In this document: positions 15,970 through 38,116 of the stretch, piece after piece | Numbering within the stretch: position 1 is the first letter of the stretch | Layout of the letters: the number at the start of each line of letters is the position of its first letter | DNA from: Actinopolyspora xinjiangensis | GTDB taxonomy: Bacteria; Actinomycetota; Actinomycetes; Mycobacteriales; Pseudonocardiaceae | Assembly (NCBI RefSeq): GCF_900104475.1 | Contig: NZ_FNJR01000008.1 | Span: 62,001-126,000 of the forward strand | Direction: 5' to 3' | Length of the DNA stretch: 64,000 nt | Made by a program: the position numbers and the translations under genes | The notes under the pieces: model-generated | What the model was told of the DNA's origin: nothing | Databases searched by the model: none | What the model saw: only the letters and a program-made list of their open reading frames with translations

Positions 15970-17856
15970 TCAGCTCGCTTCGAGCCGGGTGCGTTGCAGT
16001 TCGGCGTAGGCCCCACGTCGGTGGAGGAGTTCCTCGTGGGATCCGGACTCCACGACCCGGCCCTGGTCGAGCACCAGAATCCGGTCGGCTTGTCGGACGG
16101 TGGCCAGCCGATGGGCGATTACCAGGCACGTGCGATCACGCTGCAACTCGGCGAGCGCCCGCTGCACGTGCATCGTCGTCCGCGAGTCGACAGCACTCGT
16201 CGCCTCGTCGAGCACCAGTACCTCTGGCTCGGCCACGAACGCGCGCGTGATGGTGACGAGCTGCCGCTCACCGGCCGAGAGATTGGCGCCGTCGGCGTCG
16301 ATGTGGGTGTCGAGGCCGTGCGGTAGCACTGCCACGAACTGGTCCAGGCCGGTCCGTGAGGCAGCGCGCTCGACATCGGAACGGTGGGCGTCCTGCCGAC
16401 CGTAAGAGACGTTCTCGGCGATGGTGCCCTCGAAGAGCCAGGGGTCCTGCAACACCACACCGATGTGCGAGCGCACGTCGGCCCGAGCGAGCTCTCGCAC
16501 GTCGTGGCCGTCGAGCAGCACGCGTCCCCTCTCGACGTCGTAGAATCGCAGCAGCAGATGCGCGAGGGTGGTCTTGCCGACGCCGGTGGGGCCGACCACG
16601 GCGACCGTCTCGCCGGGCTCGGCCACCAGTGACAGATCTCGCAGCACCGGTTTCCCTGGCTCGTAGCCGAAATCGACGTGTTCGAACTCGACCCGGCCAC
16701 GCAGACGTCGCCGTTCCGGTACTCCGGTCTCCTCCTCGGGGCCGTCGAGGAATTCCAGGACTCGCGCGGTCGAGGCGATGCCCGACTGCAGCTCGTTGAG
16801 CAGCCCGGAGATCTGCCCGATCGGAGAGGAGATCTGGCGACCGTACTGCACGAACGCCTGAATCTCGCCGACCGTCATCGTCGCGCTGGCGACCCGCAAC
16901 CCTCCGACCACGCAGACGAGCACGTAGGAGAGGTTGCCGACGAACGTCATGAGGGGCATGGCCAGGCCGCTGGCAACCTGCGCCCGGACGCTCTCCGAGG
17001 CCCAGCGGTCATTGCGCTCCCCGAGCTCGGCCACGTGCTGTTGTCCACTATGGAATGACGAGATCACTTCGTGACCGCTGATGCTCTCCTCGATGGTGGC
17101 GCTCAAGGCACCCATCTGCTTCCACTGCGCCACGAAACGTGGCTGGGAACGCCGGACGAGAGCACGGGTCGCCCAGACGGCGAGGGGGAGTGTACTGAGG
17201 GTGACCAGCGTCATCAGCGGCGACAGGTACAGCATCGCGACGAGGACGCTGATGAGGGTGAAGCAGGCCGTGAGAAGTTGCCCCATCGCCTGCGTCAGCG
17301 AGGCGGTTGTGTTGTCCACGTCGTTGGTGACCCGCGAGAGCAGGTCACCGCGACCATAAGTGTCCACTGTGGCTACCGGAGTTCGGTTGAGCTTTCGCTC
17401 GACGCGCACGCGAAGCCGTAGCATGACGTGATGAATGGCGCGGTTCGTCTGTCCCACGGCGACGAGCTGCAGCAGGGTCGCGGTGGAGTAGATTCCCACG
17501 GTCACGCCGAGCAGCCGCCCCAGTTCGCCGAAGTCGATCCCGCGCCCCGGGACGAGATCGGTGCTCGCGACAACCCCCGCAAGGGTCTCCCGGCCGGAAG
17601 CGCGCAGCGCCGCCACGACCTCCTCACGGCTCTGCCCGGACGGCAGTTGAGCGCCGAGCAGGCCGTTGACCAGGGTGTCGGTGGCCCGCGCGAGAACCAG
17701 CGGACCGATGGCGGTGAGGCCTACTCCGAAGGCCGTGAGCACGACCACCGCGAGGAAGCGGCCGCGAACGGGCCGCAGGAGTCCGAGGAACCGGCGGGTC
17801 GACGAGCCGGGTTCGAGGGCACGTGGCGTGGCCGTGGAACGGGAGCGGGCGCTCAT
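15970..17856 (-). CDS. ABC exporter, canonical-NBD half (LanT1)
   Basis: A 628-residue half transporter: six-helix exporter membrane domain, then an ATPase domain in the C-terminal third. The nucleotide site is canonical: Walker A GPTGVGKTT, Walker B LVLDEATSAVD with catalytic Glu, and switch His in CLVIAHRLATV. The signature loop is divergent (NLSAGERQL). It is coupled to the preceding half transporter by a 4-bp ATGA overlap, so the two should form a heterodimer. Position directly after the precursor array suggests export of the mature lanthipeptide. It has no N-terminal C39 peptidase domain, consistent with leader removal by the M16 pair. Confidence 0.88.
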   Translation of the reverse strand: MSARSRSTATPRALEPGSSTRRFLGLLRPVRGRFLAVVVLTAFGVGLTAIGPLVLARATDTLVNGLLGAQLPSGQSREEVVAALRASGRETLAGVVASTDLVPGRGIDFGELGRLLGVTVGIYSTATLLQLVAVGQTNRAIHHVMLRLRVRVERKLNRTPVATVDTYGRGDLLSRVTNDVDNTTASLTQAMGQLLTACFTLISVLVAMLYLSPLMTLVTLSTLPLAVWATRALVRRSQPRFVAQWKQMGALSATIEESISGHEVISSFHSGQQHVAELGERNDRWASESVRAQVASGLAMPLMTFVGNLSYVLVCVVGGLRVASATMTVGEIQAFVQYGRQISSPIGQISGLLNELQSGIASTARVLEFLDGPEEETGVPERRRLRGRVEFEHVDFGYEPGKPVLRDLSLVAEPGETVAVVGPTGVGKTTLAHLLLRFYDVERGRVLLDGHDVRELARADVRSHIGVVLQDPWLFEGTIAENVSYGRQDAHRSDVERAASRTGLDQFVAVLPHGLDTHIDADGANLSAGERQLVTITRAFVAEPEVLVLDEATSAVDSRTTMHVQRALAELQRDRTCLVIAHRLATVRQADRILVLDQGRVVESGSHEELLHRRGAYAELQRTRLEAS

Positions 17857-19601
17857 GCCGTTGTCTCCTCGAGTGACTGCGACTCGACGAACTCCCGGTA
17901 GGTCGAGCACGTTCCGAGGAGGTCGTCGTGGTTTCCTTCACCGACGACGGTGCCGCGGTCGAGCACCAGAATCCGGTCGGCTTCGGCGACCGACGCGATT
18001 CGCTGGGTGACTTGTACGACGCCCGCGTCGGCGGTGGCCCGCGCCAGGCCTCGCGCCACCTCGGCTTCGGTAGTGGCGTCCAGGGCCGAGGTGACGTCGT
18101 CCAGGAGGTAGTAGTCCGCGTCGGCGACCAGGGCTCGGGCCAGACAGAGGCGTTGCCGCTGTCCGCCGGAGAAGTTCGTACCACCGGGAGCCACCGGGGA
18201 ATCGAGCCCCGCGGGCAGGTCGGTGACGATCCGCTCGGCTCTGGCCCACCGCAAGGCTTGCCACAGTCGCTCTTCGTCCGCGTCGGGTTTTCCGTAACTG
18301 AGCGCGGAACGGATCGTCCCCGAGAAGAGGTAGGGACGCTGGGGCACCAGGACGACTCGACGTCGCAGGTCGACGAGATCGGCGCTCTCCAGGTCTGTCC
18401 CGTCCAGACTGATCTGTCCACTGTCGATACTGATCTGCCGGGAGATCGCTTGCAGCAGCGTCGTCTTCCCGCTGCCGGTGGAACCGACGACCGCGAGGCG
18501 CTCGCCCGGACGTACCCGCAGCTCGACTTCGCGCAGTGCGGGCTGCTCCGCACCCGGATGGCGCACGGTGGCTCCTCGGACCTCGATCCCGAGCTCCGGA
18601 TCGCGCCACGGTGTTCCCCCGGCGACGGTGGTGCTCTCGGGTGGGGTGTGCAGCACCTCGGCGATGCGCTGGGAGCTCACCCGCGCTCGCGGCAACAGCA
18701 TGACGACGGTCGAAGCCATGAGGACAGCCGACATGAGCATAAGCAGGTAGGAAATGAAGGCGAGGACCGATCCGACGCCTATCTCCCCGGCGGCGGCTTG
18801 GTGCCCACCGAACCAGACGACCGCCACCGCTCCGAGGTTCATCAGCAGCGCGACGATCGGACCGAAGGAGAGGTAGAGACGCCCGACGCTCAGAGAGGTG
18901 TCGATGAGAGCGCTGTTGACCTGCTCGAAACGCCGCTGCTCGTGATCCTCCCGGTTGGCCGCGCGCACATCCCGCAATCCGGTGAGCTGTTCGCGCAGCA
19001 CCGCGTTGACGCGATCGATCTGGGGCTGCATGCGCCGGTACTTGGGAAGCGCCAACCAGGCGAAACCGAGCACCACCAGGACCAGTGCGGGTACCGCGAC
19101 CGCCATGAGCCATGTCAGGCGCGGCTCCTCGCGCAGGCCCATCACCACAGCGCCGATCATGGTGATCGGTACCGTCAGCACCGTGGTGCACATCGTCAGC
19201 ACCAGCATCTGGACCTGGACGACGTCGTTTCCGCAACGCGTGATCAGAGAGGCGGGGGTGAACCCTCGCACGTCCGCGGTGCCGAGCCTCATCACGTGCT
19301 GGAAGAGGGCGGCACGCAGGTCGCGGGCGATCCGGACGGAGATGTAGGCGCCGAGGGCGGTGGCCGTTCCGGCGATGAGCAACTGCAGCACCGCCAGCAC
19401 CGCCATGACCGATCCGAGGCGCCAGACCGTGTCCAGATCCCCACGGGTCACGCCCTCGTCGATGATGCGCGCGTTCAGGTGCGGCAGGTACAGGGTGCCC
19501 GCGACGCTGAGGGTCTGCAGAACGCCCAGCGCCACCAACGGCCACGCGGCCGCCCGCAGGTGGGGACGTAGCACGGACCGGGTGGGCGAGGGCGTGCGCA
19601 T
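17853..19601 (-). CDS. ABC exporter, degenerate-NBD half (LanT2)
   Basis: A 582-residue half transporter with six membrane helices and a C-terminal ATPase. Walker A (GSTGSGKTT) and signature (FSGGQRQR) are normal. The Walker B catalytic Glu is Asp (YYLLDDVTSALD), and the switch His is Gln (VVQVTQRIASV). Its own Walker site is therefore the degenerate one of a heterodimer, as in TM287/288-type exporters. It is the first gene of the exporter pair, 208 bp downstream of the last precursor gene and beyond a terminator-like hairpin. The role is export of the cluster product or self-protection. Confidence 0.88.
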   Translation of the reverse strand: MRTPSPTRSVLRPHLRAAAWPLVALGVLQTLSVAGTLYLPHLNARIIDEGVTRGDLDTVWRLGSVMAVLAVLQLLIAGTATALGAYISVRIARDLRAALFQHVMRLGTADVRGFTPASLITRCGNDVVQVQMLVLTMCTTVLTVPITMIGAVVMGLREEPRLTWLMAVAVPALVLVVLGFAWLALPKYRRMQPQIDRVNAVLREQLTGLRDVRAANREDHEQRRFEQVNSALIDTSLSVGRLYLSFGPIVALLMNLGAVAVVWFGGHQAAAGEIGVGSVLAFISYLLMLMSAVLMASTVVMLLPRARVSSQRIAEVLHTPPESTTVAGGTPWRDPELGIEVRGATVRHPGAEQPALREVELRVRPGERLAVVGSTGSGKTTLLQAISRQISIDSGQISLDGTDLESADLVDLRRRVVLVPQRPYLFSGTIRSALSYGKPDADEERLWQALRWARAERIVTDLPAGLDSPVAPGGTNFSGGQRQRLCLARALVADADYYLLDDVTSALDATTEAEVARGLARATADAGVVQVTQRIASVAEADRILVLDRGTVVGEGNHDDLLGTCSTYREFVESQSLEETTA

Positions 19602-19726
19602 GGTCGGCTCCAGTCGATCCGGTCGGCTCGGGTGCGGCTCGTGACTTCGTGCTGACCAACCTAGGCAGCGCGGCCGTCACGCGGATCCGACTGCGGGACG
19701 ATGTCGCCGCTCCGCTCCAGGGAGGA

Positions 19727-19770
19727 GAAAATCCCGCTCCGTCTCCGCTGCCTGTCGTAGCCGGAGCGGG
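19727..19770 (-). terminator. Attenuator/terminator between precursor array and exporter
   Basis: On the minus strand CCCGCTCCG pairs perfectly with CGGAGCGGG (19762-19770 with 19733-19741), followed by ATTTTCT. This is one of the few hairpins here with a real T-run. It lies about 40-80 bp after the last precursor stop and ahead of the exporter genes. It would keep precursor mRNA abundant relative to transporter mRNA. Confidence 0.65.
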
Positions 19771-19809
19771 GTTTCTCGTCCCGGTTCTCCCGTGCTCTGC
19801 CGTATTCCG

Positions 19810-19977
19810 TCAGCAGCCGTGCTCGAAGGTGTTCTGCACCGAGGCGGCCGAGACGAGCGAGCAGGGCACGGACGAGGTGGCGGTCGGCGTGACGGCGGGC
19901 GCCTCGTCCTCACCAGCGTGCAGCTCGGCGGCGTTGGTGTAAGCGGCGTAACCGGCGATGAGATCCTGAGTGCTCAT
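19810..19977 (-). CDS. lanA4: Class V lanthipeptide (lanthidin) precursor, copy 4
   Basis: A 55-residue precursor. The leader MSTQDLIAGYAAYTN...AVTP (about residues 1-34) is shared with three sister genes. The predicted core begins SSVPC (35-39) and ends NTFEHGC (49-55). Cys39 can ring with a dehydrated N-terminal Ser. Thr50 and Cys55 form a T-x4-C pair suited to AviMeCys after oxidative decarboxylation of the terminal Cys. The pattern matches cacaoidin (SSAPC ... TASWGC). Ribosome site GGAGAGAG four bases before ATG. There is no Tyr at core position 8 and no glycosyltransferase gene nearby, unlike cacaoidin. The leader/core border is inferred by analogy. Confidence 0.9.
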   Translation of the reverse strand: MSTQDLIAGYAAYTNAAELHAGEDEAPAVTPTATSSVPCSLVSAASVQNTFEHGC

Positions 19978-20063
19978 AACTCTCTCCTTATGAATCGACC
20001 GAAGGGACGGCGACCCGCGATCCGGGCGAGTGCCGCCCCTTCGGAACCAACGTGCGAGCTGAT

Positions 20064-20231
20064 TCAGCAGCCGTGGTCGAACGTGTTGTCGACCGAGGCG
20101 GCCGAGATGAGCGAGCAGGGCACGGACGAGGTGGCGGTCGGCGTGACGGCGGGCGCCTCGTCCTCACCAGCGTGCAGCTCGGCGGCGTTGGTGTAAGCGG
20201 CGTAACCGGCGATGAGATCCTGAGTGCTCAT
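20064..20231 (-). CDS. lanA3: Class V lanthipeptide (lanthidin) precursor, copy 3
   Basis: A 55-residue precursor, identical in leader to copy 4. Its core starts SSVPCSLISA and ends VDNTFDHGC. It differs from copy 4 at only three core residues: Val to Ile, Gln to Asp and Glu to Asp. It keeps Cys39, Thr50 and Cys55 for the two predicted rings. Ribosome site GGAGAGAG. Products of copies 3 and 4 should be close congeners. Confidence 0.9.
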   Translation of the reverse strand: MSTQDLIAGYAAYTNAAELHAGEDEAPAVTPTATSSVPCSLISAASVDNTFDHGC

Positions 20232-20318
20232 AACTCTCTCCTTATGAATCGACCGAAGGGACGGCGACCCGCGATCCGGGCGAGTGCCACCTTCGCTGGA
20301 AAATAACGGGAAAACCGC

Positions 20319-20486
20319 TCAGCAACCGCTGTTCAAGGTTTCCGTGACCGAGGCACCGACCGTGACCCCGCAGGGGAACGACGACGTGGTGCTCGGCGTG
20401 ACGGCGGGCGCCTCGTCCTCACCAGCGTGCAGCTCGGCGGCGTTGGTGTAAGCGGCGTAACCGGCGATAAGATCCTGAGTGCTCAT
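20319..20486 (-). CDS. lanA2: Class V lanthipeptide (lanthidin) precursor, copy 2
   Basis: A 55-residue precursor with the common leader. The core differs from copies 3-4: SSFPCGVTVGASV, then TETLNSGC. Cys39, Thr50 and Cys55 are at the same positions, so the two-ring plan is preserved while the middle and hydrophobic positions change. Ribosome site GGAGAGAG. Expressed together with the other subtype, it may give a two-component mixture or independent congeners. Confidence 0.9.
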   Translation of the reverse strand: MSTQDLIAGYAAYTNAAELHAGEDEAPAVTPSTTSSFPCGVTVGASVTETLNSGC

Positions 20487-20570
20487 AACTCTCTCCTTAT
20501 GAATCGACCGAAGGGACGGCGACCCGCGATTCGGGCTGCCCCCCTCCCCGGAAAATAAGGGGAAAGCTGC

Positions 20571-20738
20571 TCAGCAACCGTTGTCGACGGTTTCGGCGAC
20601 CGAGGCGCCGACCGAGACCCCGCAGGGGAACGACGACGTGGTGGTCGGCGTGATGGCGGGCGCGTCGTCCTCACCAGCGTGCAGCTCGGCGGCGTTGGTG
20701 TAGGCGGCGTAACCGGCGATGAGATCCTGAGTGCTCAT
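20571..20738 (-). CDS. lanA1: Class V lanthipeptide (lanthidin) precursor, copy 1
   Basis: The first precursor of the array, 55 residues. The leader has two changes (EDD for EDE, AITP for AVTP). The core begins SSFPCGVSVG and ends AETVDNGC, again with S-S-x-P-C and T-x4-C. Ribosome site AGGGGAGA; unlike the later copies it has a unique upstream region with two dyads (20773-20787, 20809-20823) that probably holds the array promoter. Confidence 0.9.
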   Translation of the reverse strand: MSTQDLIAGYAAYTNAAELHAGEDDAPAITPTTTSSFPCGVSVGASVAETVDNGC

Positions 20739-20970
20739 GATTCTCCCCTGGTTTCGTGATGTAGTGACGGAGGAACCTCGGAGGTTCTCCTGCGAGGCCG
20801 TCCGTGACCTCGTTGAGAACGAGATTAGGAAGCGCCGAAATCATCACTCATCGGCCGCGCGGACCATCTGTACGTCTCCGTCGCACTCACGACGTGGTTG
20901 TCCCCGACTCAGCGATCGAGCTCCTCCGCCGTGTCGATTTCGGATGCCCCTCCAGAGGCGTCGCCGCTGG
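20739..20970 (-). promoter_or_regulatory. Upstream region of precursor array with two dyads
   Basis: 232 bp between the M16 gene stop and the first precursor. It contains GAACCTC-G-GAGGTTC (20773-20787) and CTCGTT-GAG-AACGAG (20809-20823). These symmetric sites lie where a promoter for the array is expected and could bind the cluster response regulators or the Xre protein. I could not fix a clear -35/-10 pair. Confidence 0.45.
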
Positions 20971-22251
20971 TCACGATGGCCGTGCGACCACCTCGACCCG
21001 CCGTTCAGAACCGAGGTAGCGGCGACCCGCCGCCGCTACCTCGGCAGGCTGGAGGTCGGCCGCGGCATCGGCGTGGCGTTCCCACATGCCGAGGGTCTCA
21101 CCACCGAACACCACCGACGCGGCGGCGCCCGCGAGGGCCGATGGAGTCGACAGCCCCACGGTGACGGCGTTGGTGGAGTAACGCACCGCGGCTTTCAGCT
21201 CCTCCGCTTCCGGACCACGACGACACAGCTCGTCGACGGTCTCGGTGACGATGCCGCGCACCGCTTCGATCCGGTCTGCGGGACACTCGAGGGACACGAC
21301 CAGGGTGGCGGCATCGGCGAGCACCTCGAACCCTCCGGTTACCCCGTACACGTCACCCCGACGCTCGCGGAGTTCCTGGTTGAGACGCGAACCGAAGTAT
21401 CCGCTCAGGCACATGCTGAGCTGTTGCAACGCCGGGTGGTCCGGGTGCTGGCGCACCGGAGCGGGAGATCCCAGCCGCAGCGAGGCGATCGGCTCGTCGG
21501 ATGGGAGCCGAAGGACGGTTCGTGTCCCACCCTGGGGAGCGGCCTCATGATCGTCCGGTCGAGCCGCGGATCGACACAACGTCCGGGATGCACGTGTGAC
21601 CGGTTCCGCGAGCCGGGGCCAGACCACGTCCCAGTGCCGGCCCCGGTCGGTGCCGAGGTCTCCTACGACCACCACCGTGGCTCCGTCGAGTGTCAGCACA
21701 TCGGCGGCGACCCGGCACATCTCCGCCGCCTCCGGGGCCTCGGCGAGCACCCCGGTGAAGTCGTCCGTCGAATGGACGGTACGCGCGTAAGGGTGGTCCG
21801 CTCCCCAGCGGAGGCGGGCGAGACTCGGCTGCAGCAACACCTCGCGGTGTCCCGCTACCTGAGCGAATCGGGTGGCCTCGGCACGAAACACGTCAGCCAC
21901 GGCCTCGTCGGTGTAGTCGGGTCGGACCAATCGCCCGAACAGCTCCGACAGCGCCCAGTCGAGTTGGGCGGAAGGCACGGTCGCGGTGAGGTGGAACCGA
22001 TCGACCGCCGTGCCGCCGGTGATGCTGCCGCCCCTGCGCAGCACCCGCTCGTCGTGACCGGCCAGGTTCCGGTCTTCCGGACCGAGCGGCAGCAGGCGTC
22101 CCAGCAACTGGGTCAGCGCCGCTTCTCGACGGGAGTGACGGACCAGGGGAAGTACTACGCGTATCTCCGTGAAGGTGGCTCCGGGCCAGTCGACGGCGAC
22201 CAGATCGGTGCCGTCCTGGGTGCGTTCCTGTCGGTGCGCCGGCAGTCTCAT
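20971..22251 (-). CDS. M16B peptidase-like subunit lacking zinc site (LanP2)
   Basis: A 426-residue protein with two M16 (insulinase/pitrilysin) lobes. The N-terminal lobe lacks any HxxEH; the equivalent region reads LPLVRHSRREAAL. The C-terminal lobe keeps the R/Y substrate-binding motif GSRLNQELRERRGDVYG (about residues 287-303). It should act with the zinc-bearing partner as a heterodimeric peptidase. Class V lanthipeptide clusters such as lexapeptide encode a comparable M16B pair for leader removal. The start ATG at 22251 overlaps the partner's stop (ATGA); the longer frame to 22455 is a shadow of the partner gene. Confidence 0.87.
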   Translation of the reverse strand: MRLPAHRQERTQDGTDLVAVDWPGATFTEIRVVLPLVRHSRREAALTQLLGRLLPLGPEDRNLAGHDERVLRRGGSITGGTAVDRFHLTATVPSAQLDWALSELFGRLVRPDYTDEAVADVFRAEATRFAQVAGHREVLLQPSLARLRWGADHPYARTVHSTDDFTGVLAEAPEAAEMCRVAADVLTLDGATVVVVGDLGTDRGRHWDVVWPRLAEPVTRASRTLCRSAARPDDHEAAPQGGTRTVLRLPSDEPIASLRLGSPAPVRQHPDHPALQQLSMCLSGYFGSRLNQELRERRGDVYGVTGGFEVLADAATLVVSLECPADRIEAVRGIVTETVDELCRRGPEAEELKAAVRYSTNAVTVGLSTPSALAGAAASVVFGGETLGMWERHADAAADLQPAEVAAAGRRYLGSERRVEVVARPS

Positions 22252-23513
22252 GTCGCGTCCGCTTCCGATGGCAGGACCAGAATCGATCCGACGGCTTGCC
22301 CGAGGAGGTGCTCGGCCGCCGCGCCTAGGAGGTCGCGGTCCAGGGCGCGGGCGGGGTCGACGGTGTGGTCGAAGAGAGGGTCCCCGAACAGGAGCTGAGT
22401 CGCGCCCAGCCGCCGGGCGCGGTGTGCGGGACGTTCGGCGCGCTGGTACTGCCACAGCCGCAGCCGCGCCGGGGCGGTTTCCAGCACGGCTGGACGCGGT
22501 CTCCCATCACGCCAGGGCGCGAGGAGTTCGCGCACCATCTCGATGAGCTGGTCCCCGCCAACCCCGTGGCGCGGATGGGTGGAGAGCACCAGGGGATCCG
22601 GGGAGCGCGCGTCGGCGGGCGTGCCGAACCAGCCGGAACGCGCGGTGATTCCGGCGGCGGGGTCGTGGACGGGCAACAGCGTCGCCAAAGCGGTGCATGC
22701 CGCGAACACGAGGGGGTTTCGTCGTGGGTCCGGCAGCCGGAAACCGACCGCCCACACCGGCTCCGGGATGTTGCGGGCCCGGACCACCTCGTGCCGGTCC
22801 CGCTGTCGGGGCGGTTCCGAGACGTCGATCTCCCCTTCGTCGCTGTCGGGGCTGGCCGGGATCGCGCTCAGCGACTCGCGCGCCGCCGCGAGAGCGGAAG
22901 GCCTGAGATCCCCTTCGAGCGTGACGACTATCCGGTGGGGCGCGTACCAGGTCGCGAAGAACCGCGCGGCGTGCCCGGGTGTCACCGTGGCCAGGGTGTC
23001 GAGATCACCGTAGCCGTCGTGAATGTTGGGGTGAGTGGAGTACATGGTCGGAGGGAGGAAACGCCAGGGAAAGCCCCCGTAGGGCGTGGCACCGACCTGT
23101 TCGAGCTCGGCCCGGATCACACCGAGCTGGGTGCGCAGCGTCTCCGGGTCGAGCCGGGGCTCCGACAGGCGATCGGCTTCGAGTCCCACCACCTCGCCGA
23201 GCGCGTGAGCGGGTACGACGTCGAACAGCTCCGTGTAGTCGTGCCGGGTGTGCCCCCCGACTCGGCCGCCGACGCTTTCGACCGCCGCGAAGTGACCGCC
23301 GGGGGCGACGTTGGCACTGCCACCGAACATCAGGTGTTCGAAGAAGTGGGCCATGCCGGAGTAGTCGGCCGGTTCGGATCGGAATCCCACCCCGACATGG
23401 ACGGCGACTGTGGCCACCCCGGTGGTAACGGCCGGAGCGGTGACGAGCGTGAGCCCGTTCGACAGGATCTCGACACTCGGGGTGGCGCGGTCCGAATAGC
23501 TCACTTGACTCAC
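22248..23513 (-). CDS. M16B zinc peptidase, catalytic subunit (LanP1)
   Basis: A 421-residue catalytic half of the leader peptidase. The inverted zinc motif HFFEH is at residues 56-60, with the expected downstream Glu (VIRAELEQ). Otherwise it has the usual beta-alpha M16 fold elements (VGVGFRSEPADYSGMAHF, DYTELFDVVP). The R/Y substrate clamp is in the neighbouring protein, so activity needs both. The GTG start at 23513 overlaps the GPP34 stop by four bases (GTGA); a second GTG lies three codons later. The longer frame to 24224 overlaps the GPP34 gene and is rejected. Confidence 0.88.
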   Translation of the reverse strand: MSQVSYSDRATPSVEILSNGLTLVTAPAVTTGVATVAVHVGVGFRSEPADYSGMAHFFEHLMFGGSANVAPGGHFAAVESVGGRVGGHTRHDYTELFDVVPAHALGEVVGLEADRLSEPRLDPETLRTQLGVIRAELEQVGATPYGGFPWRFLPPTMYSTHPNIHDGYGDLDTLATVTPGHAARFFATWYAPHRIVVTLEGDLRPSALAAARESLSAIPASPDSDEGEIDVSEPPRQRDRHEVVRARNIPEPVWAVGFRLPDPRRNPLVFAACTALATLLPVHDPAAGITARSGWFGTPADARSPDPLVLSTHPRHGVGGDQLIEMVRELLAPWRDGRPRPAVLETAPARLRLWQYQRAERPAHRARRLGATQLLFGDPLFDHTVDPARALDRDLLGAAAEHLLGQAVGSILVLPSEADAT

Positions 23514-24145: not shown

Positions 24146-24224
24146 GTCGACCTCTCCTTCGTGATTGCCGATAGCCCCCTCGGGGCAGGGCCGGACGCGG
24201 AGCCGCCCGGGCGAGGAGTCCCAC

Positions 24225-25006: not shown

Positions 25007-25013
25007 ACGGCTA

Positions 25014-25042
25014 GTTTATGCAACAGAGGACCGAAAAAGCAA
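25014..25042 (-). promoter_or_regulatory. Promoter of the Xre-led operon
   Basis: On the minus strand: -35 TTGCTT (25037-25042), 17-bp spacer, -10 TAAACT (25014-25019), seven bases before the ATG. The short distance suggests leaderless transcription. Confidence 0.5.
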
Positions 25043-25043
25043 G

Positions 25044-29944: not shown

Positions 29945-29980
29945 GCCGTTCCGGCGGGAGGCGACGGGAACCGCCCGGCA

Positions 29981-30724: not shown

Positions 30725-30731
30725 GGTGTGC

Positions 30732-31583: not shown

Positions 31584-31628
31584 GAGCACGTCCTTCCTGG
31601 GAGAGGAACTCGGAAGCGTTGGTGTCGG

Positions 31629-32606
31629 TCAGCTGTGATCGAAGTTGTCGTCCCCGGTGGGAACCGCGTTGAACGCGAAGGTGTCGGGATCGACACCGGC
31701 TCGCGCGCACTCCGCCGTGAGCAGCTCGTCGAATCCGGGCCCGGGGTCTTCGGCGTGCCGGACCAGAGCGTTGGCCACCACGGTGCAACGGTGCTCGCCG
31801 AAACTGAGTTCGCGGTACTGCGGCCTCGGGTCCCGGGGTTCGTCGGCGACGGCGACACCGTCCGCGATGCGGTGGGCGAATGTCGAGACCTCGTCGAGGA
31901 TTCCGGGCATCCCCGCCACCGCTTCGGCGACGTCGTGGGCCAGGTCCGCGTCGTTCCGCTCGAGGTAGACGACCAGGGCGTCACGTCGGGGGTAGCCCTC
32001 CCGGTGGGACAGCACCTTGGATCGGTAACGGACGCCGAGGTCGTTGAGTACCCGAAGGGCCTCCCGCCACACGGGGCCTGCCGACTCCGGGTCGGCGAGA
32101 TGGATGTAAATCCGTCGGAGACCGGTGGCGCTCCCGCGGGTCGAGCCCCGCGGACCGTCCACCAGATAGAAGCCGCGAGAGAGGCCGGGCCTGGATGCGG
32201 GCAGGGCCAGTTCGGCGACCGATCCGCTCGCGGCGTCCTCGGGCAGCAGCTCCTCCGGCACCCGAACCCGGACATCACCGAGATCGACCACGGCGCCGTC
32301 GTCCTCACGCCGCAGCACGTGGGCACGCCGGGGCGTCGTGTCATGTGGCTGGTTGTCGGCAAACGTCTCCTCGACGTCCTCCTCGCGCAGAATACGGCCG
32401 AGATCCTTCTCCTCGGCGCGGCCCATGTGCAGGACCTCGTACATGGCACCGACCAGACGAGGCCGCAGCTTGGCAGGAGATCCCCCCTCCACGTCGCGGA
32501 GGCCGACGGTGGCGGTCCAGTTCTCCGCGTCGACACGTACCTCGGACAGCGCCTCGAGGACGCGCTCGCGTGCTCCGGCGCCGGTAAGGATGATGGAGTT
32601 GTTCAT
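31629..32606 (-). CDS. lanY: HopA1-domain protein, LanY-like (class V dehydration partner)
   Basis: A 325-residue protein of the HopA1 effector family. Recognisable elements: FYLVDGPRGSTRGS, RIYIHLADPESAGPVWREAL (in part: RIYIHLADPESAG), VRYRSKVLSHREGYPRRDALVVYLER (in part: SKVLSHREGYPRRDALVVY), and a C-terminal tail. In class V lanthipeptides (lexapeptide, cacaoidin) and thioamitides a HopA1 protein acts as a lyase-like partner of a phosphotransferase-like protein, eliminating phosphate from Ser/Thr. Coupled to lanK by a 4-bp ATGA overlap, as expected for an obligate pair. Ends with a small acidic tail (DDNFDHS). Confidence 0.85.
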   Translation of the reverse strand: MNNSIILTGAGARERVLEALSEVRVDAENWTATVGLRDVEGGSPAKLRPRLVGAMYEVLHMGRAEEKDLGRILREEDVEETFADNQPHDTTPRRAHVLRREDDGAVVDLGDVRVRVPEELLPEDAASGSVAELALPASRPGLSRGFYLVDGPRGSTRGSATGLRRIYIHLADPESAGPVWREALRVLNDLGVRYRSKVLSHREGYPRRDALVVYLERNDADLAHDVAEAVAGMPGILDEVSTFAHRIADGVAVADEPRDPRPQYRELSFGEHRCTVVANALVRHAEDPGPGFDELLTAECARAGVDPDTFAFNAVPTGDDNFDHS

Positions 32607-33793
32607 GCGACGGGCTCCTCCGAGGCTGTGGGAAGGGCGGATGTCCGCCCGGACGGGGAAAGTTCGGCGTCCGAGAGACTCGGCAGTCCGAGAGCCGGGG
32701 CGGCATCGCCGGGGTTCAGCAGGGCCTGACGTCCGATGCCCGCGGCGGCCCAGTGCACCGCGGAGACGCGCGGGACGTATTCGGCTACCGCGAGGAGTCG
32801 GTCGAACATGTGCCACCCCGCGAAGCGGGCCGCGCGCCGCACGAACTCGGGAGTCGCGGTATCACCGCGCGCTGCCCAGTAGGACTCCCAGAACCGAGTG
32901 ATCACGGGGCGCTGGCGGTCGAGCGCCGCGGTCCCGCCCGCGACGACATCCTCGTGGTCGAGTTCCAGCTCGGCCGCGGCGGCCCCGGCGGCGGCTCCCG
33001 CGGCTCCGGAGCGGTCGGTGACGATGTCGAGAGCGGCACGGTGCAGCCACTCGCCGACCATCGACCCCACGTCACGGGCAGGATCGCCGCGACGGAACTC
33101 CTCGATGTCCACGAGCCGCAGCACCTCGTCGTGCCCCAGGAGCAGCTGGTCGAGTCGGAAGTCGCCATGGATGGCTGTGGGGGTGGCCGCCGCCTCGTCA
33201 CGCTGCAGCACGCGCAGCGCGTCCGCGACCTCCTCGTCGCGCTGCAGCCGGTTCCACACCCGCAGCACCGACGCGGATGCCTGCCGGTACAGCTTCCACG
33301 GCAAGGCGTCGAGGAAAGCGACCGGTGGCATGTGCAGGGGTTCGGTGCGTTCGGGGACCCGCTCGACGTCGAGCGCGTGAACGGCGGCGAGGATTCGGCC
33401 GAGGGCCCACGCGTGATCGGCGACGGAAGACCGGGCGGACTCCGCGTTCTCCGGCTCCTCGCGTGCGAGTTCGGCCAGACTGGACGCCCCGGCCACCGCC
33501 TCGTAGGCGAGGAACCCGTGCTCCCGGTCCGAAGCGAGCAGCGGAGCGGTGCCCAGCTCCGACCGGATGGTGGTGTTCTCACGCCGCAGCGTCTCGAACG
33601 CCGTGCACGCGGCGAACCTCTCCCGGCTCTCCGCGCCGCTGCCTCGGACGGTCTTGATGAACAAGGGGGTGTCCGTGGTGGTGACCACCAGGAAGTTCGC
33701 GTTGCGGCCGTTCTGCTCCTTGACGGTCTCCGGACGGACCCGACCCAGTTGGTGGGCGGTCAGGAACTCGTCGACACGGGAATCGATACGCAT
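32603..33793 (-). CDS. lanK: Phosphotransferase-like LanK (class V kinase)
   Basis: A 396-residue APH/choline-kinase-fold protein: ATP-lobe FIKTVRGSG (45-53), brenner-like loop AIHGDFRLDQLLL (207-219) with catalytic Asp, and metal region LVDIEEF (227-233). The usual Asn of HGDxxxxN is Gln, and DxD is DIE. It should phosphorylate Ser/Thr of the precursor core, then LanY eliminates. The ATG at 33793 is chosen; a GTG at 33853 would add 20 unconserved residues. First gene of the lanK-lanY-methyltransferase-regulator operon; 521-bp leader region upstream. Confidence 0.85.
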   Translation of the reverse strand: MRIDSRVDEFLTAHQLGRVRPETVKEQNGRNANFLVVTTTDTPLFIKTVRGSGAESRERFAACTAFETLRRENTTIRSELGTAPLLASDREHGFLAYEAVAGASSLAELAREEPENAESARSSVADHAWALGRILAAVHALDVERVPERTEPLHMPPVAFLDALPWKLYRQASASVLRVWNRLQRDEEVADALRVLQRDEAAATPTAIHGDFRLDQLLLGHDEVLRLVDIEEFRRGDPARDVGSMVGEWLHRAALDIVTDRSGAAGAAAGAAAAELELDHEDVVAGGTAALDRQRPVITRFWESYWAARGDTATPEFVRRAARFAGWHMFDRLLAVAEYVPRVSAVHWAAAGIGRQALLNPGDAAPALGLPSLSDAELSPSGRTSALPTASEEPVA

Positions 33794-34314
33794 GTCTGTC
33801 CTAGGGGTCGGGGAGCTGTCGGGCGCAGCCTGCTCGCCCGTCGGTGCCACCACCTTCGCCCGCTCGCGGGCTCACGCGCATCGGCCGCCGGATCGACTTG
33901 TTGACGGCGGCAGCTCAATCAAACGAGTGAGAGCGCAGGAGTCGAGCTCCGTCTCGCGGAGGAGAAAAACCGCCGCGAGGACGAAGGGCACGCTCCAACA
34001 GCGCTCCATCGGGTACCGCGGGAGGGGGAGTGTTCGACCCGTCGGCGCGGGAAGCCCCGATCACACGTTTCGTCACCCGCGGCGCGGCCGATTAACCGCC
34101 CAGCTCGAAGTGCCCGTGCGGGGACCCTCGCGGTTCCAGCGGGAACTCCGCCCACCGGACACATCCGGTCACGGTGAACGATCAGCAGGACTCGGACAAC
34201 GGATGTGCGGGTGTTCTCGGCGAAGTGCTCGTGGCGGGCGGCCACAGCGGGTGTTCGTTCCCCACTGCGCCGTCCGATCGATCACAACGGGCTCACGGCT
34301 CGGTGAGGCACCCC
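33794..34314. other. 521-bp gap upstream of lanK
   Basis: Between the response regulator stop and the lanK start, both on the minus strand. It probably holds the lanK promoter. Open frames here are not convincing: one plus-strand frame from 34174 has a GG motif but no ribosome site and runs antisense into the regulator gene. Confidence 0.5.
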
Positions 34315-35052
34315 TCAGGAGGAGTCCTCGTTGGACTCGACGTTGCCGACCTCGTCCATCAAGCCGCACTCGAACGCGAAGACGACGAGTTTCACCCGAT
34401 CACGCAGCTGCAACTTGTGCAGGCAGCTCGAAACATGGGTCTTGATCGTCGCTTCACCCACCACCAGACGATCGGCGATCTCACGGTTGGACAGCCCTTG
34501 GCCCACGTAGCACAGGATCTCCCGCTCCCGGTGGGTCAGCTCGGCCAACATACGACGGCGATCTCCGGCTCGGGAAGCCCCGCGCCATGCCTCGGCGGCG
34601 CTGCAACCACGACGGATGACCTGGCGGGTGACCTCGGGCGCGAGCAGGGCATGGCCTTCGAAGGCGGCGAACACGGCCTGGACGAGTTGGGCGGGGTCGG
34701 AGTTCTTCAGCAAAAAGCCCGACGCACCCGCCTGGAGGCTCTCCAGCACGTTGTCCTCGTCGTCGAAGCTGGTGAGTATGATCACCGAGGCCTGGTACTC
34801 CGCGGTGATCCGCCACGTTGCCTGGATACCGTCCATCCCCGGCATCTGGATGTCCATCAGTACGATGTCGGGCCGGAGTCGCCGGGTCAGCTCGATCGCT
34901 TCCGTACCGTCACATGCCTCGCCCACGACCTCCAGGAACTGTTCGGTGTTGAGGATCGTGGCGAGACCGGACCTGACCAGCTGCTGGTCGTCGACCAGCA
35001 GCAGCCGAATCGGCCGGGTGAGTTCGTTGTGGCCCGCGTGCTGAACGCTCAC
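34315..35052 (-). CDS. NarL/LuxR-type response regulator, partner of adjacent kinase
   Basis: A 245-residue response regulator. Receiver: LLVDDQQLVRSG, acceptor Asp in VLMDIQMPGMDG, Thr in ILTSFDDE and Lys in LLKNSDP. HTH: THREREILCYVGQGLSNREIADRL, quoted in parts, with ATIKTHVSSCLHKLQLRDRV. It starts with GTG at 35052, overlapping the kinase stop by four bases. With the kinase and the LanM-like gene it forms a three-gene coupled operon, so this system presumably controls lanthidin expression or immunity. The final 30 residues are acidic. Confidence 0.9.
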   Translation of the reverse strand: MSVQHAGHNELTRPIRLLLVDDQQLVRSGLATILNTEQFLEVVGEACDGTEAIELTRRLRPDIVLMDIQMPGMDGIQATWRITAEYQASVIILTSFDDEDNVLESLQAGASGFLLKNSDPAQLVQAVFAAFEGHALLAPEVTRQVIRRGCSAAEAWRGASRAGDRRRMLAELTHREREILCYVGQGLSNREIADRLVVGEATIKTHVSSCLHKLQLRDRVKLVVFAFECGLMDEVGNVESNEDSS

Positions 35053-36347
35053 GTGTTCTCCTGAGGCCAGGTGAGACAGGCTTCCACGCAGTAACCGCCG
35101 TTCTCGGTGGTCGAGGTGCGCAGACTTCCGTTGTGCAGCTCGACCCGCTCGCGCATCCCCACGAGCCCTACCTGGCTGCCCGAGGTGTTGCCTCGGGGGC
35201 GGCCGTTGTCGACGACCCGCAGCCGTACCTCACGAGGGGAGGTGTCCTCCAGGACCTCGACGCACACGTCCACGTGATCGGCTGTCGAATGACGACGAAC
35301 GTTGACCAGGGCTTCTTGGAGGATGCGGTGGAGCGCCAGGGCCGGTGCGGAAGGAATCCGCTCGAGGTCACCGCTCTCCCGTACGTCGATCCGCAGACCG
35401 AGCCGGCGGAAGGACTCCACCGTGGTACGCATGGCCCCGATACCGTCGTGAGCTCCTTCCCCCGTGCCTTTCTCGTCACGTACCCGCAGCGCGCTCAGCA
35501 ACAGCCGCAGATCCTGAGTGGCGGCCCGTGCGGAATGCTCGACCTGGCTCATGGCCTCGACCGCCTTGTCGGGGTCGGTGGTGAGGACACGGCGAGCGGC
35601 ACTGGTCTGAATACCGATCACCGACACGTGGCGCCCGACGACGTCGTGCAGTTCACGAGCTATCCGCAGTCGTTCCTCGCCGACAGCGCGCTCGCTGAGC
35701 TCGGCCGTCTGCTTCGCGATGGTGATCGCCTGCTGGGTCGCGGCGTCCTCCCGTCGCGCCCTCCACCATGTGAGGACACCCGCGAGGGTGGCGCTGAGAT
35801 AGAAAACGGTGGTGGAGAGCAGAACCTGCAGCACGGCCGCGGTGGTAGCGGAGAAGACACCGTAGCTGGACTGCAACGCCAGCGTTTCGAGCTGCTGACG
35901 GATCAGAAAGTCGTACAGGATCCAGGCACCGGCCACCAGGGCGAAGACCAGCGCCAGCACCATGGCGCCGATCCGGTGCCACGCCCAGGCCATGGCATTG
36001 AAAAGGGAGAAGAAATAGTACACCTGCACGAAGAAGACCGGTGACAGCATCGGAGCGAAGATCGCGGTCAGAATGAGGTGGACCGTGGCGATCGCGAGCA
36101 CCGTCAAGGGGAACAGGCGCCGCACAACGAGGGTCAGGATCGGAACGACGACCCACAGCAACTGTTCGACAACGCTCATTTCCACTTCGAGGAGCGAACC
36201 GAGACTTCGGGCCGTCTCCATCGAGAGCAGGGCGCATCCACCGAAGACCAGCGCGAAGAGGAAGTCGATGCGCAGCACCTGGCGGGTGTCGACCGGCCGG
36301 CGCCATTGTTCATCCACACCGGACACATGTCGGAGCCACCCGATCAT
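35049..36347 (-). CDS. Sensor histidine kinase (NarX/DesK type)
   Basis: A 432-residue membrane kinase. The N-terminal 200 residues contain five or six helices with little extracellular sequence, suggesting it senses something within the membrane. HisKA_3 follows, with the phospho-acceptor in RIARELHDVVGRHVSVIG, then a HATPase domain: LHRILQEALVNVRRH (N box), VVDNGRP (G1) and GLVGMRERVELHNGSL (G2). It starts with ATG at 36347, overlapping the LanM-like stop (ATGA), and overlaps the regulator at its end. Membrane-buried sensors of this type often detect lipid II-binding peptides (inference). Confidence 0.9.
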   Translation of the reverse strand: MIGWLRHVSGVDEQWRRPVDTRQVLRIDFLFALVFGGCALLSMETARSLGSLLEVEMSVVEQLLWVVVPILTLVVRRLFPLTVLAIATVHLILTAIFAPMLSPVFFVQVYYFFSLFNAMAWAWHRIGAMVLALVFALVAGAWILYDFLIRQQLETLALQSSYGVFSATTAAVLQVLLSTTVFYLSATLAGVLTWWRARREDAATQQAITIAKQTAELSERAVGEERLRIARELHDVVGRHVSVIGIQTSAARRVLTTDPDKAVEAMSQVEHSARAATQDLRLLLSALRVRDEKGTGEGAHDGIGAMRTTVESFRRLGLRIDVRESGDLERIPSAPALALHRILQEALVNVRRHSTADHVDVCVEVLEDTSPREVRLRVVDNGRPRGNTSGSQVGLVGMRERVELHNGSLRTSTTENGGYCVEACLTWPQENT

Positions 36348-38116
36348 AAGGCTCCGTCTTCCTGCGCGAATGTCGTAGTTCTTCCGGTTTTCCCTGATTC
36401 CCCAGACCCCCACACGTCGAGAGCGCGGTGCGCCGCTTCGGCTTCTCGCTCGGCATCCTCATCGGTCAGCCGGCTCACCGCCCGCAGGCAGTGATCCAAC
36501 GGGGACAGTCGACAGCGGACCCCGGTATCGGCACCGTGTCCGTCACGGACGGACGTGCCGCGCGGGGAAACGCGGAAGCTCGGCATGTCCCCCACAGCGA
36601 GCTGACGCATCTCCGCGTTCACCAGTCGTGGCGGAGTTGGCGGATCGAGCACGACCAGACGCCCGAAGACCCGCCGCCGTGCCTCGTGACCGGCGAAGGC
36701 CGGGTGCGTGGCCATACGCAGTACCTGGTGGTAGAGCATCGTTGGACGGTGTACGTAGCGCACGCTCCCCCGTTCGAAGGATTCCTCGATCGTGCGCAGC
36801 GTCCGTTCCCGGTGGCGCAGTACCCAGGAGACCACGTCGGTGAAACCACCGACCAGCTCGTCGCGCTCGGCCCGAGTCCGAGGGTGGGCGGTGGGTGCCG
36901 GTCCTGGGTGTTCAACCCGTATCGAAGCCATCTCGAGACGCATGTCGTCGCGACCCACGTTGACCGCCTTCCAGCCTCGGAACGGCGAGCGATCACCCGG
37001 GCGGTATGCCAATGCGCCCGGGTCGAACGCACGGTCATCGAACTCGTCGTTCGCGTCGTCAGCCCGCTCACGACGCAGCGAGAGCATGCCTGTCGCCACG
37101 ACGCCGAGCAGTCCGTCGGACCGAGCGAACCCCAGCCCCTCGATGCGAGGGGTCATGAGGGTCTCGGCGTCGACGACCACGGGCAGTCCGCGCGAGTCGG
37201 TGAGCAGGTTCTCGTAGTGGATGTCGGTGGCGTCGAGGAGATACAGCGCCGCGAGCAGGGCGCCCGCGACGCGCGGGTACCCGTGGGCGGGCGGTGTCCG
37301 CCCGTCGAAGTGCTCGACCCAGCCTCGTAGGTCCGTGCTGTAGGACGTCGGTTCGGGCACCTCGATCCCCACCCGCTCCCCCAGCCAGGAAGCGAACCGG
37401 GTGAATCCCTGCTCGACCCACAGGTCGCGCGGCTTGGCCACGACGCGTCGACCGGAGTCAAGGAGGAGGACGGCTACACTTCGGCCACCGCCGTGCGTGT
37501 CGCCTGTGCCGAGGTCGATGTCCTCGATCCGGTCCTCGGGTCGCGCTCCGGCGACCGCACCGGTCACCGCCTCCCACCGCGACTGCGTGTCGTGCAGCAT
37601 CGCCAGCACGGCGTCACGGCGCGTTCGCACCACGAGACGCACCCAAGCGACCATGTCGGGCACGTCGTCGGCGATGTCGGCGATGCCGGACGAGGACGCC
37701 GACTCCGCCACGAAGGCGGCGAAGCGCTCCTCGGCGCTGTGGCCGCGGAGTGCGCCCGCTCGACGCGCGTCGTCCAGCCGCTGCAGCAGGGTGCGAGCCA
37801 CGAGTGCGGTGGCCTGGGCCACCAGGTGTTCCCGCACCCTGTCGATCACGCGGGCAGGACGGGCGATTATCGTGAGAGCGCTCAACGCATCGTGCACCGG
37901 CTCGACGAGATCCCCCACCAGACGCGCCGCGACTTCCCCCAGCCGAGGCTCTCCTTCGGTTCCTCTTGGATATAGTTCCGCGAAAGTACACTGCGGCGCT
38001 TCGCGCGGGCGCCAACGCGATGCTCGTGGTAGCGCCACGGCGTCGATTCTCCCCAGTACAGCATCAAGTTCGTCAGGATCGTTTACCTCGGGGAAAAGCA
38101 CCCTCCAAGGATTCAC
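36344..38116 (-). CDS. Stand-alone LanM-type dehydratase domain, no cyclase half
   Basis: A 590-residue protein matching the N-terminal dehydratase (DUF4135) half of class II LanM synthetases. Diagnostic blocks: GDTHGGGRSV (205-214), VVAKPR (225-230, ATP-site Lys), GWVEHF, LYLLDATDIHYENLL (291-305, catalytic loop), VVVDAETL (313-320), HRPTMLYHQVLRMATHP and AVGDMPSFRVSP. Normal LanM proteins are near 1000 residues, with a C-terminal LanC-like zinc cyclase. Here the frame ends after the dehydratase and the kinase gene begins in the overlap. Kinase-like residues are intact, so it may be active. The GTG start at 38116 has no clear ribosome site; the true start may be internal. Confidence 0.85.
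   Translation of the reverse strand: MNPWRVLFPEVNDPDELDAVLGRIDAVALPRASRWRPREAPQCTFAELYPRGTEGEPRLGEVAARLVGDLVEPVHDALSALTIIARPARVIDRVREHLVAQATALVARTLLQRLDDARRAGALRGHSAEERFAAFVAESASSSGIADIADDVPDMVAWVRLVVRTRRDAVLAMLHDTQSRWEAVTGAVAGARPEDRIEDIDLGTGDTHGGGRSVAVLLLDSGRRVVAKPRDLWVEQGFTRFASWLGERVGIEVPEPTSYSTDLRGWVEHFDGRTPPAHGYPRVAGALLAALYLLDATDIHYENLLTDSRGLPVVVDAETLMTPRIEGLGFARSDGLLGVVATGMLSLRRERADDANDEFDDRAFDPGALAYRPGDRSPFRGWKAVNVGRDDMRLEMASIRVEHPGPAPTAHPRTRAERDELVGGFTDVVSWVLRHRERTLRTIEESFERGSVRYVHRPTMLYHQVLRMATHPAFAGHEARRRVFGRLVVLDPPTPPRLVNAEMRQLAVGDMPSFRVSPRGTSVRDGHGADTGVRCRLSPLDHCLRAVSRLTDEDAEREAEAAHRALDVWGSGESGKTGRTTTFAQEDGAL

What the first reader, a model, noticed from the sequence alone, without database searches (positions are those of the whole stretch)
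15970..38116. A cacaoidin-like class V lanthipeptide (lanthidin) cluster
Seen: four precursors with S-S-x-P-C core starts and T-x4-C ends, next to a HopA1 protein, a phosphotransferase-like protein, an HFCD decarboxylase, an LLM reductase, an N-methyltransferase, an M16 pair and ABC exporters. Known: class V lanthipeptides (lexapeptide, cacaoidin, pristinin) use LanK/X/Y with these tailoring enzymes, and cacaoidin has SSAPC ... TASWGC. Inference: the products carry an N,N-dimethyl-lanthionine ring, D-amino acids and AviMeCys. Absence of a glycosyltransferase and of core Tyr8 predicts non-glycosylated relatives.
Basis: partly seen in the sequence, partly recalled or inferred. Interest (0 to 1): 0.93.

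Follow-up and report, generated by a model that had tools for sequence, protein, structure and literature searches.

The report
Class V lanthipeptide cluster, extra dehydratase
This is a gene cluster for a recently recognised kind of ring-containing peptide, probably an antibiotic, sitting on a 23-kb inserted piece of DNA; it has the expected parts plus one odd extra enzyme, half of a synthetase from a different class, that was not seen alone in the other clusters examined.

Summary
A 23-kb island (window 15276-38324), absent from the nearest same-genus genome, carries four 55-aa precursors with LxmA-type leaders, an LxmK-type kinase (LanK), a HopA1 lyase (LanY) with CaoY's catalytic spacing, a LanX with RosX's Glu/His/Asp triad, decarboxylase, LLM reductase, methyltransferase, M16 pair and exporters: the class Va set. 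It is a new member.

(1) The core probably starts at V/I29 after "APA", as in lexapeptide-type precursors, not at SSxPC, and the methyltransferase resembles those of lexapeptide-type loci; this predicts N,N-dimethyl-Val/Ile, not N,N-dimethyl-lanthionine. SSxxC and T-x4-C are common in class V cores. Of 98 other LanK loci (about 93 distinct), 4 have a DUF4135 protein nearby, each with a LanC domain. Its role is inferred, not shown. New variant of a known kind.

The parts
15276..38324 (.). Genomic island carrying the whole cluster
   Evidence: Nearest same-genus genome G177 aligns up to window 15275 and again from 38325 with 111 bp between; G117 shows nearly the same junction (15273 | 38339) with 105 bp between
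15970..17910 (-). ABC exporter (membrane + ATPase)
   Evidence: PF00664, PF00005
17853..19601 (-). ABC exporter (membrane + ATPase)
   Evidence: PF00664, PF00005
19810..19977 (-). LanA precursor; core probably VTPTATSSVPCSLVSAASVQNTFEHGC
20064..20231 (-). LanA precursor; core probably VTPTATSSVPCSLISAASVDNTFDHGC
   Evidence: NF038146 LxmA_leader 46.6 bits, cut-off 25
20319..20486 (-). LanA precursor; core probably VTPSTTSSFPCGVTVGASVTETLNSGC
20571..20738 (-). LanA precursor; core probably ITPTTTSSFPCGVSVGASVAETVDNGC
20971..22251 (-). M16 family protein, no HxxEH (inactive partner)
   Evidence: PF05193; no HxxEH
22248..23504 (-). M16 peptidase, HFFEH present (probable leader peptidase)
   Evidence: PF00675; translation
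23510..24145 (-). GPP34-domain protein, role unknown
   Evidence: PF05719; no tblastn match at 1e-5 in 98 LanK loci
24225..24713 (-). probable membrane protein
   Evidence: no family above cut-off
24710..25006 (-). HTH_3 regulator
   Evidence: PF01381
25090..26082 (+). ABC transporter ATPase
   Evidence: PF00005
26079..27335 (+). ABC-2 membrane protein
   Evidence: PF12698
27434..28417 (+). LanJ, LLM/F420-type reductase (start chosen among candidates)
   Evidence: PF00296; best NCBIfam model TIGR03564 (MSMEG_4879 family), 99.7 bits, below its cut-off 234
28414..29049 (+). LanD, HFCD cysteine decarboxylase
   Evidence: PF02441 above cut-off; NCBIfam CoaBC and CypD models 81.7 and 73.5 bits, both below cut-off
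29042..29944 (+). LanX, kinase-fold AviMeCys cyclase
   Evidence: iterated profile hits 66 of 99 sources, window included; model pLDDT 92.9, best match TvaE, LxmK at rank 4; E218/H265/D268 match RosX E220/H269/D272
29981..30724 (-). LuxR-type response regulator
   Evidence: PF00072, PF00196
30732..31589 (-). SAM methyltransferase (N-terminal dimethylation inferred)
   Evidence: PF13649/PF08241/PF08242, no Methyltransf_2; homologues in 33 of 98 LanK loci
31629..32606 (-). LanY, HopA1-type phosphoSer/Thr lyase
   Evidence: PF17914, 8.5e-43; R165-K197-R207-Y214 has CaoY R187-K219-R229-Y236 spacing
32603..33853 (-). LanK, Ser/Thr kinase
   Evidence: NF038156 367.2 bits, cut-off 315
34315..35052 (-). 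LuxR-type response regulator
   Evidence: PF00072, PF00196
35049..36347 (-). sensor histidine kinase; start codon overlaps the DUF4135 stop (ATGA)
   Evidence: PF07730; junction sequence
36344..38116 (-). Stand-alone LanM-type dehydratase domain (DUF4135), no LanC domain
   Evidence: PF13575 3.2e-60, no LANC_like hit; LanM model 240.5 bits, cut-off 304; CylM/LicM2 by sequence and fold; residues
15424..15639 (+). Small ORF with a good ribosome-binding site, possible second precursor (speculative)
   Evidence: no NCBIfam or Pfam hit; family search gave no convincing homologue

Best explanation
A class Va lanthipeptide cluster on a 23-kb island in a member of the Pseudonocardiaceae (family inferred). 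LanK phosphorylates Ser/Thr in the core of each of four precursors and LanY eliminates the phosphates. The first ring (Ser7-Cys11 in a 27-residue core beginning V/I-T-P) forms largely by itself from the Dha-Dha-x-Pro-Cys stretch. LanD decarboxylates the terminal Cys and LanX closes the AviMeCys ring Thr22-Cys27. LanJ reduces some dehydro residues to D-amino acids, the M16 pair removes the leader after APA, and the methyltransferase then dimethylates the free N-terminal Val/Ile. ABC proteins export the products or give immunity. Gene content, signatures and predicted folds are shown here; the order of steps, ring pattern, cleavage site and methylation are inferred from lexapeptide, cacaoidin and rosin. 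The stand-alone LanM dehydratase domain lies in the same island and keeps its catalytic residues; I think it most likely adds dehydrations (phosphorylation, then elimination) to a peptide of this island, which is inference at about 0.4.
For: LxmA leader and LxmK models above curated cut-offs. HopA1 and the CaoY catalytic spacing R-x31-K-x9-R-x6-Y (in 92 of 98 LanY-like ORFs, the window's own included, and in 14 of 20000 shuffles of this sequence). LanX: profile hit in 66 of 99 sources; Foldseek ranks 1-2 are TvaE 8jsu (best E 1.4e-8) and ranks 4, 8 and 21 LxmK, among many other APH-fold kinases (229 matches at E <= 0.001); RosX triad conserved. LanD, LanJ, M16 and methyltransferase by Pfam. 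Similar gene sets in other LanK loci. A26-P27-A28 matches CaoA's A-3 P-2 E-1 and, from that cut, L6, Y10, Y13, E18 and L19 lie one residue off CaoA's M-24, F-20, Y-17, E-12 and L-11. The lexapeptide-type core fits literature numbering with the cut after APA. 39 of 68 distinct cores begin x-[ST]-P in this frame, the window's four included. Island boundaries enclose all parts.
Against: No product or expression data. Class V was described by its lack of class I-IV synthases, yet a class II dehydratase domain is present. LanD and LanJ are below NCBIfam cut-offs. LanX departs from its relatives at several positions conserved in over 90% of 38 sequences (window L34, F77, G162, L175, T197 and one gap), though not at the tested triad. 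LanK identity to any found is at most about 40%, so details may differ. Leader spacing alone is a weak guide: the distance from the Glu-hydrophobic pair to AP varies, mostly 7 to 12, among the 89 of 120 precursors that fit the pattern, and a cut before SSxPC would put the leader residues five off CaoA's positions, not absurdly far. The cleavage site is not known by experiment.
Confidence: 0.85

Rival explanations
1. Cacaoidin-like lanthidin: a 21-residue core starting at the first Ser of SSxPC, N,N-dimethyl-lanthionine at position 1.
For: Same S1-S2-x-P-C5 start and T-x4-C end as cacaoidin's SSAPC...TASWGC (cacaoidin core from PMC8068269). The M16 pair's specificity is unknown, and leader length varies in the family.
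Against: The conserved A-P-A would then lie at -9 to -7 instead of -3 to -1. The methyltransferase is not the Methyltransf_2 type of Cao4 but has homologues in 13 of 16 loci with lexapeptide-type precursors. No glycosyltransferase among 19 island proteins.
Confidence: 0.15
2. The DUF4135 protein belongs to a separate minor class II-like pathway inside the island, acting on another peptide such as the 71-aa ORF at 15424-15639, with no role in the four class V products.
For: Two of the four LanM genes beside other LanK loci have their own small precursor-like ORF just upstream (L131; L057); for the other two none was convincing (L122, L066). The window domain groups with the L131 LanM (local support 0.948, long branches). 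The 71-aa ORF has a good ribosome-binding site and coding-like GC by position.
Against: The 71-aa ORF has no convincing homologue; its likeness to the L131 precursor ranks 15th of 10325 small ORFs; it lies over 20 kb from the DUF4135 gene and no LanC-type cyclase is beside either.
Confidence: 0.25
3. The DUF4135 gene is a leftover of a lost LanM and does nothing.
For: It lacks the LanC domain, and no other of the 98 loci shows it alone. LanK/LanY suffice for all dehydrations in cacaoidin and rosin.
Against: Open 590-codon frame; all ten checked CylM residues kept; it ends where the dehydratase domain ends, with a histidine kinase after it, not LanC remains; its stop overlaps the kinase start.
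Confidence: 0.25
4. The DUF4135 protein phosphorylates a peptide without eliminating the phosphate (EmbM-like), or serves regulation with the adjoining two-component system.
For: EmbM, a LanM dehydratase-like protein without a cyclase domain, leaves phosphothreonines in phospeptin; that cluster also has a sensor kinase and response regulator (PMC9505594, passages). Here the gene overlaps the kinase gene.
Against: EmbM lacks the residues for phosphate elimination; here those found necessary in CylM (D252, H254, R506, T512) are all kept.
Confidence: 0.1

Closest known systems
Lexapeptide (lxm) cluster, class Va lanthipeptide
   Same: LxmA-type leader, LanK, LanY, LanX, LanD, F420-type LanJ, M16 pair, related methyltransferase; hydrophobic-[ST]-P core start (FSP in lexapeptide-type precursors, VTP/ITP here)
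   Different: Four precursors, 27-residue cores with SSxPC ring, two response regulators and a kinase, GPP34 protein, and a stand-alone LanM dehydratase domain
Cacaoidin (cao) cluster, lanthidin
   Same: SSxPC and T-x4-C motifs, LanK/Y/X/D/J and M16 genes
   Different: Ring not at the N-terminus in the predicted core; different methyltransferase family; no glycosyltransferase; extra DUF4135
Rosins (ros) cluster, Microbispora rosea ATCC 12950
   Same: RosX Glu/His/Asp triad kept in LanX; ring preceded by a short N-terminal stretch; several precursors; M16 pair
   Different: ros has no N-methyltransferase, and no LanM domain is listed for it
PoyF and EmbM, LanM dehydratase-type proteins without a cyclase domain
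   Same: LanM dehydratase domain without LanC
   Different: They act in a proteusin pathway and on a Nif11-type leader; here the domain sits in a class Va cluster that already has LanK/LanY

Membership tests
Class Va lanthipeptide cluster | Precursor with class V (LxmA-type) leader | tested here: met
   NF038146 46.6 bits vs 25 for the one precursor scanned; all four in the iterated profile
Class Va lanthipeptide cluster | LanK kinase | tested here: met
   NF038156 367.2 bits vs 315
Class Va lanthipeptide cluster | LanY (HopA1) lyase with catalytic residues | tested here: met
   PF17914; R165, K197, R207, Y214 spacing (CaoY residues)
Class Va lanthipeptide cluster | LanX cyclase with Glu/His/Asp | tested here: met
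   E218, H265, D268 aligned with the L071 (M. rosea ATCC 12950) residues; fold
Class Va lanthipeptide cluster | LanD decarboxylase | tested here: met
   PF02441 above cut-off; NCBIfam CypD model below its cut-off, 73.5 vs 215
Class Va lanthipeptide cluster | No complete class I-IV synthetase and no LanC in the cluster | tested here: met
   No LanC, LanB, LanKC or LanL among 19 island proteins scanned; but a LanM dehydratase domain is present. The genome's one LanC above cut-off lies in a class I cluster on another contig
Class Va lanthipeptide cluster | Product with Lan and AviMeCys rings | not testable with these tools
   No metabolite data
Cacaoidin-type lanthidin | N,N-dimethyl-lanthionine at core position 1 | tested here: inconclusive
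   APA position and lexapeptide analogy argue against; not observable directly
Cacaoidin-type lanthidin | Methyltransf_2-type methyltransferase (Cao4-like) | tested here: not met
   Methyltransf_25/11/12/23 and TehB hits only
Cacaoidin-type lanthidin | Glycosyltransferases and deoxysugar genes | tested here: not met
   None among the 19 island proteins
Class II LanM synthetase (DUF4135 protein) | Dehydratase domain with kinase and elimination residues | tested here: met
   Ten CylM residues kept (roles of nine); fold match to CylM and LicM2
Class II LanM synthetase (DUF4135 protein) | C-terminal LanC cyclase domain; NCBIfam LanM cut-off | tested here: not met
   No LANC_like hit; 240.5 bits vs 304, profile 5-519 of 932

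The most novel reading that the evidence does not exclude
A class V/class II hybrid: the stand-alone LanM dehydratase domain works on the same four precursors as LanK/LanY, taking a subset of Ser/Thr (for example the Thr-rich stretch V/I-T-P-x-x-T before the first ring), so that two different ATP-dependent dehydration systems share one core peptide.
Probability: 0.3. Interest if true: 0.7.

Novelty: new variant of a known kind. Interest (0 to 1): 0.45.

Why it matters
The cluster adds four new cores and a divergent enzyme set (LanK at most about 40% identical to any found) to class Va, a family whose first member, cacaoidin, is active against MRSA. The extra LanM dehydratase domain makes a clean question testable: can class II and class V dehydration enzymes be used on one peptide, and how are residues divided between them? 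A yes would widen the rules for combining lanthipeptide enzymes. The revised core start also changes the masses to look for.

Tried and rejected
Rejected: that the DUF4135 protein is a frameshifted full LanM (the histidine kinase, not LanC, follows it). Rejected: that the genome's LanC serves this cluster by neighbourhood; it lies with LanB and two PCMT-type methyltransferases on another contig, and a second, sub-cut-off LANC-like match lies near it. Not supported: the 71-aa ORF at 15424-15639 as a second precursor. The family search gave 15 of 297 genomes, own included, best non-self E 1.1e-4; in the forward frames of the five loci printed I saw no precursor-like ORF (other strand not read, two 12-kb stretches fetched not examined further). 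Its likeness to the L131 precursor is weak: 9 of 5000 shuffles as good, 15th of 10325 small ORFs; a motif scan gave mostly unrelated ORFs. A genome-contig scan with the DUF4135 protein found no relative; it uses exact peptide patterns, so only close relatives would show. A phylum sample of 396 genomes gave 3 with a match at 1e-15, own included; the other two sit in frames over 1000 codons, and those two genomes have no LxmK. Plasmids: 110 records, none covering 80% of the query.

Faults in my own steps: the DUF4135 profile took in three wrong-frame sequences; a clean profile of 18 rows, without the window and without three of the four class V-locus LanMs (the fourth, L066, was never in the alignment), gave the same five sources. 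By tblastn only 3 of 98 loci match (L057, L122, L131). Two queries (M16b, LLM) were in the wrong frame; corrected. The 98 loci are the best 80 of 152 relatives plus 18 family stretches; five pairs gave the same LanK alignment, and several loci are cut by contig ends, so 4 of 98 is a lower bound. The DUF4135 model alignment used 21 of the 24 relatives, all LanMs, so its likeness to LanM structures is partly built in.


Full report
Observation. The four precursors are real: 55-aa ORFs on the - strand at 19810-20738, tandem copies spaced 252-255 bp with 97, 84 and 71% identity to the first over 228 nt; the one scanned hits the NCBIfam LxmA leader domain above cut-off.

Class. LanK scores 367.2 bits against the LxmK equivalog model, cut-off 315. 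LanY is a HopA1 protein whose R165, K197, R207 and Y214 have exactly the spacing of CaoY R187, K219, R229 and Y236, residues tested or discussed in PMC9486802 (parts 1-3 of 5 read); 92 of 98 LanY-like ORFs, the window's included, share the pattern, and 14 of 20000 shuffles do. The 300-aa protein at 29042-29944 has no Pfam or NCBIfam hit but is LanX: its iterated profile finds a relative in 66 of 99 sources, the window included, in L052 and L053 in one frame with the decarboxylase; its model (pLDDT 92.9) best matches TvaE (ranks 1-2), with LxmK at ranks 4, 8 and 21 among many APH-fold kinases. Glu220, His269 and Asp272, essential in RosX (PMC12291118, parts 1-4 of 6 read), are E218, H265 and D268 here. 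That alignment is anchored on the LanX of locus L071, Microbispora rosea ATCC 12950; that L071 is the ros locus follows from the strain name, and its numbering in my slice is offset by two. LanD, LanJ, the methyltransferase and an M16 pair with one active (HFFEH) and one apparently inactive member complete the class Va set. No LanC lies in the island.

Island. The nearest same-genus genome, G177 (99% in the marker protein), is 96-97% identical on the left flank and 90-97% on the right; it aligns to window 15275 and again from 38325, with 111 bp between. G117 shows nearly the same junction with 105 bp; G165 has the same edges with 1.4 kb between. In G097 and G150 the nearest flanking matches are 6.6 and 8.4 kb apart, too close for the island. 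In G134, G072 and G188 the contig ends; G038 matches only on the right. None of the nine other genus members has an LxmK. So the cluster, DUF4135 gene included, sits on one segment of about 23 kb that relatives lack, while the TipAS-type regulator at 38330 is outside it. No tRNA was found in the window. The genus was not determined.

Core start. In CaoA (leader ...EAPE, core SSAPC...) Met-24, Phe-20, Tyr-17, Glu-12 and Leu-11 matter for dehydration, and A-3 P-2 are conserved in its group. With a cut after A28 the window has L-23, Y-19, Y-16, E-11, L-10, A-3, P-2; with a cut before SSxPC the five would be five off and A-P at -9 and -8. Spacing is not fixed in the family, so this is support, not proof. 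Stronger: lexapeptide-type precursors (16 loci; called lexapeptide-type from recall of LxmA and the S. rochei record L120) read ...APA-FSPTIPW...; from there the L120 core is 38 aa, its only Phe is residue 1 and residue 28 is Ser, which fits N,N-dimethyl-Phe (PMC10373908, passages) and D-Ala28 (PMC8068269, outline, one section and passages). In this frame 39 of 68 distinct cores begin x-[ST]-P (cores taken by pattern from 120 precursor hits, the window's four included). The methyltransferase has homologues in 13 of those 16 loci and no Methyltransf_2 hit, whereas Cao4 is a Methyltransf_2 protein. I therefore predict N,N-dimethyl-Val or -Ile and a V/I-T-P-x-x-T stretch before the ring. Ser-Ser-x-Pro-Cys fits the (Dhx)2-x-x-Cys motif that cyclises by itself in rosin.

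The extra enzyme. Window 36344-38116 encodes 590 aa matching DUF4135 (3.2e-60) and LanM profile positions 5-519 of 932, below the LanM cut-off. D206, H208, K228, D298, H300, N303, D316, E318, R453 and T459 align with CylM D252, H254, K274, D347, H349, N352, D364, E366, R506 and T512; all but E366 are reported as mutated and important for phosphorylation or elimination in PMC4550811 (passages). The model (pLDDT 76.5) matches CylM and LicM2 at E about 1e-20, the next hit at 2.5e-5; its alignment was of LanMs. It is the only DUF4135 match in the genome at E 0.001. Its stop codon overlaps the start of the histidine kinase. Excised dehydratase domains of CylM, HalM2 and NukM are reported sufficient for dehydration, while CcaM's is not (PMC10676384, passages). 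PoyF and EmbM are natural cases without a cyclase domain, the second a kinase only (PMC9505594, passages).

How rare is it? A DUF4135 profile over 98 other LanK loci (about 93 distinct) hits 4 besides the window: L122, L057, L131 and L066, each with a LANC_like domain. L131 and L057 have their own precursor-like ORF beside the LanM. In a tree of 22 dehydratase domains the window groups with L131 (support 0.948), both on long branches. PMC12291118 states that no LanC or LanC-like domain has been identified in class Va clusters. My nine answered literature searches turned up no paper on a stand-alone LanM dehydratase in a class V cluster that I recognised; most hits were seen as listings only, and the library holds open-licence papers only. 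PMC11162475 (passages) was also looked at and says nothing on this.

Result against the bold reading: the lexapeptide-type loci and most other class V loci with the same x-[ST]-P core start show no DUF4135 nearby, and LanK/LanY alone did 8 or 9 dehydrations in cacaoidin and rosin, so there is no need for a second dehydratase that I can see.

Noticed in passing
window 23510-24145 (-): A GPP34 (Golgi phosphoprotein 3-like) protein is in the island, next to the M16 genes; no tblastn match at 1e-5 in the 98 LanK loci compared.
   Followed up: partly
L145 (own genome, contig 33), 6479-16475: A separate class I lanthipeptide cluster (LanB, LanC, second Lant_dehydr_C protein) with two PCMT-type methyltransferases.
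   Followed up: no
window 15424-15639 (+): Small ORF with good ribosome-binding site and acidic middle part, in the island; possible but unsupported second precursor.
   Followed up: partly
L064:17569-17736 (Nocardia mexicana): A class V precursor ending SVDNTFDHSC, almost the same C-terminus as window SVDNTFDHGC, on an otherwise different core.
   Followed up: no
L057 and L131: Full LanM genes with their own precursor-like ORF within 8 kb of LanK/LanY: mixed class II/class V loci.
   Followed up: partly
L049: Two LanK-LanY pairs in tandem, with two LanX-like genes nearby.
   Followed up: no
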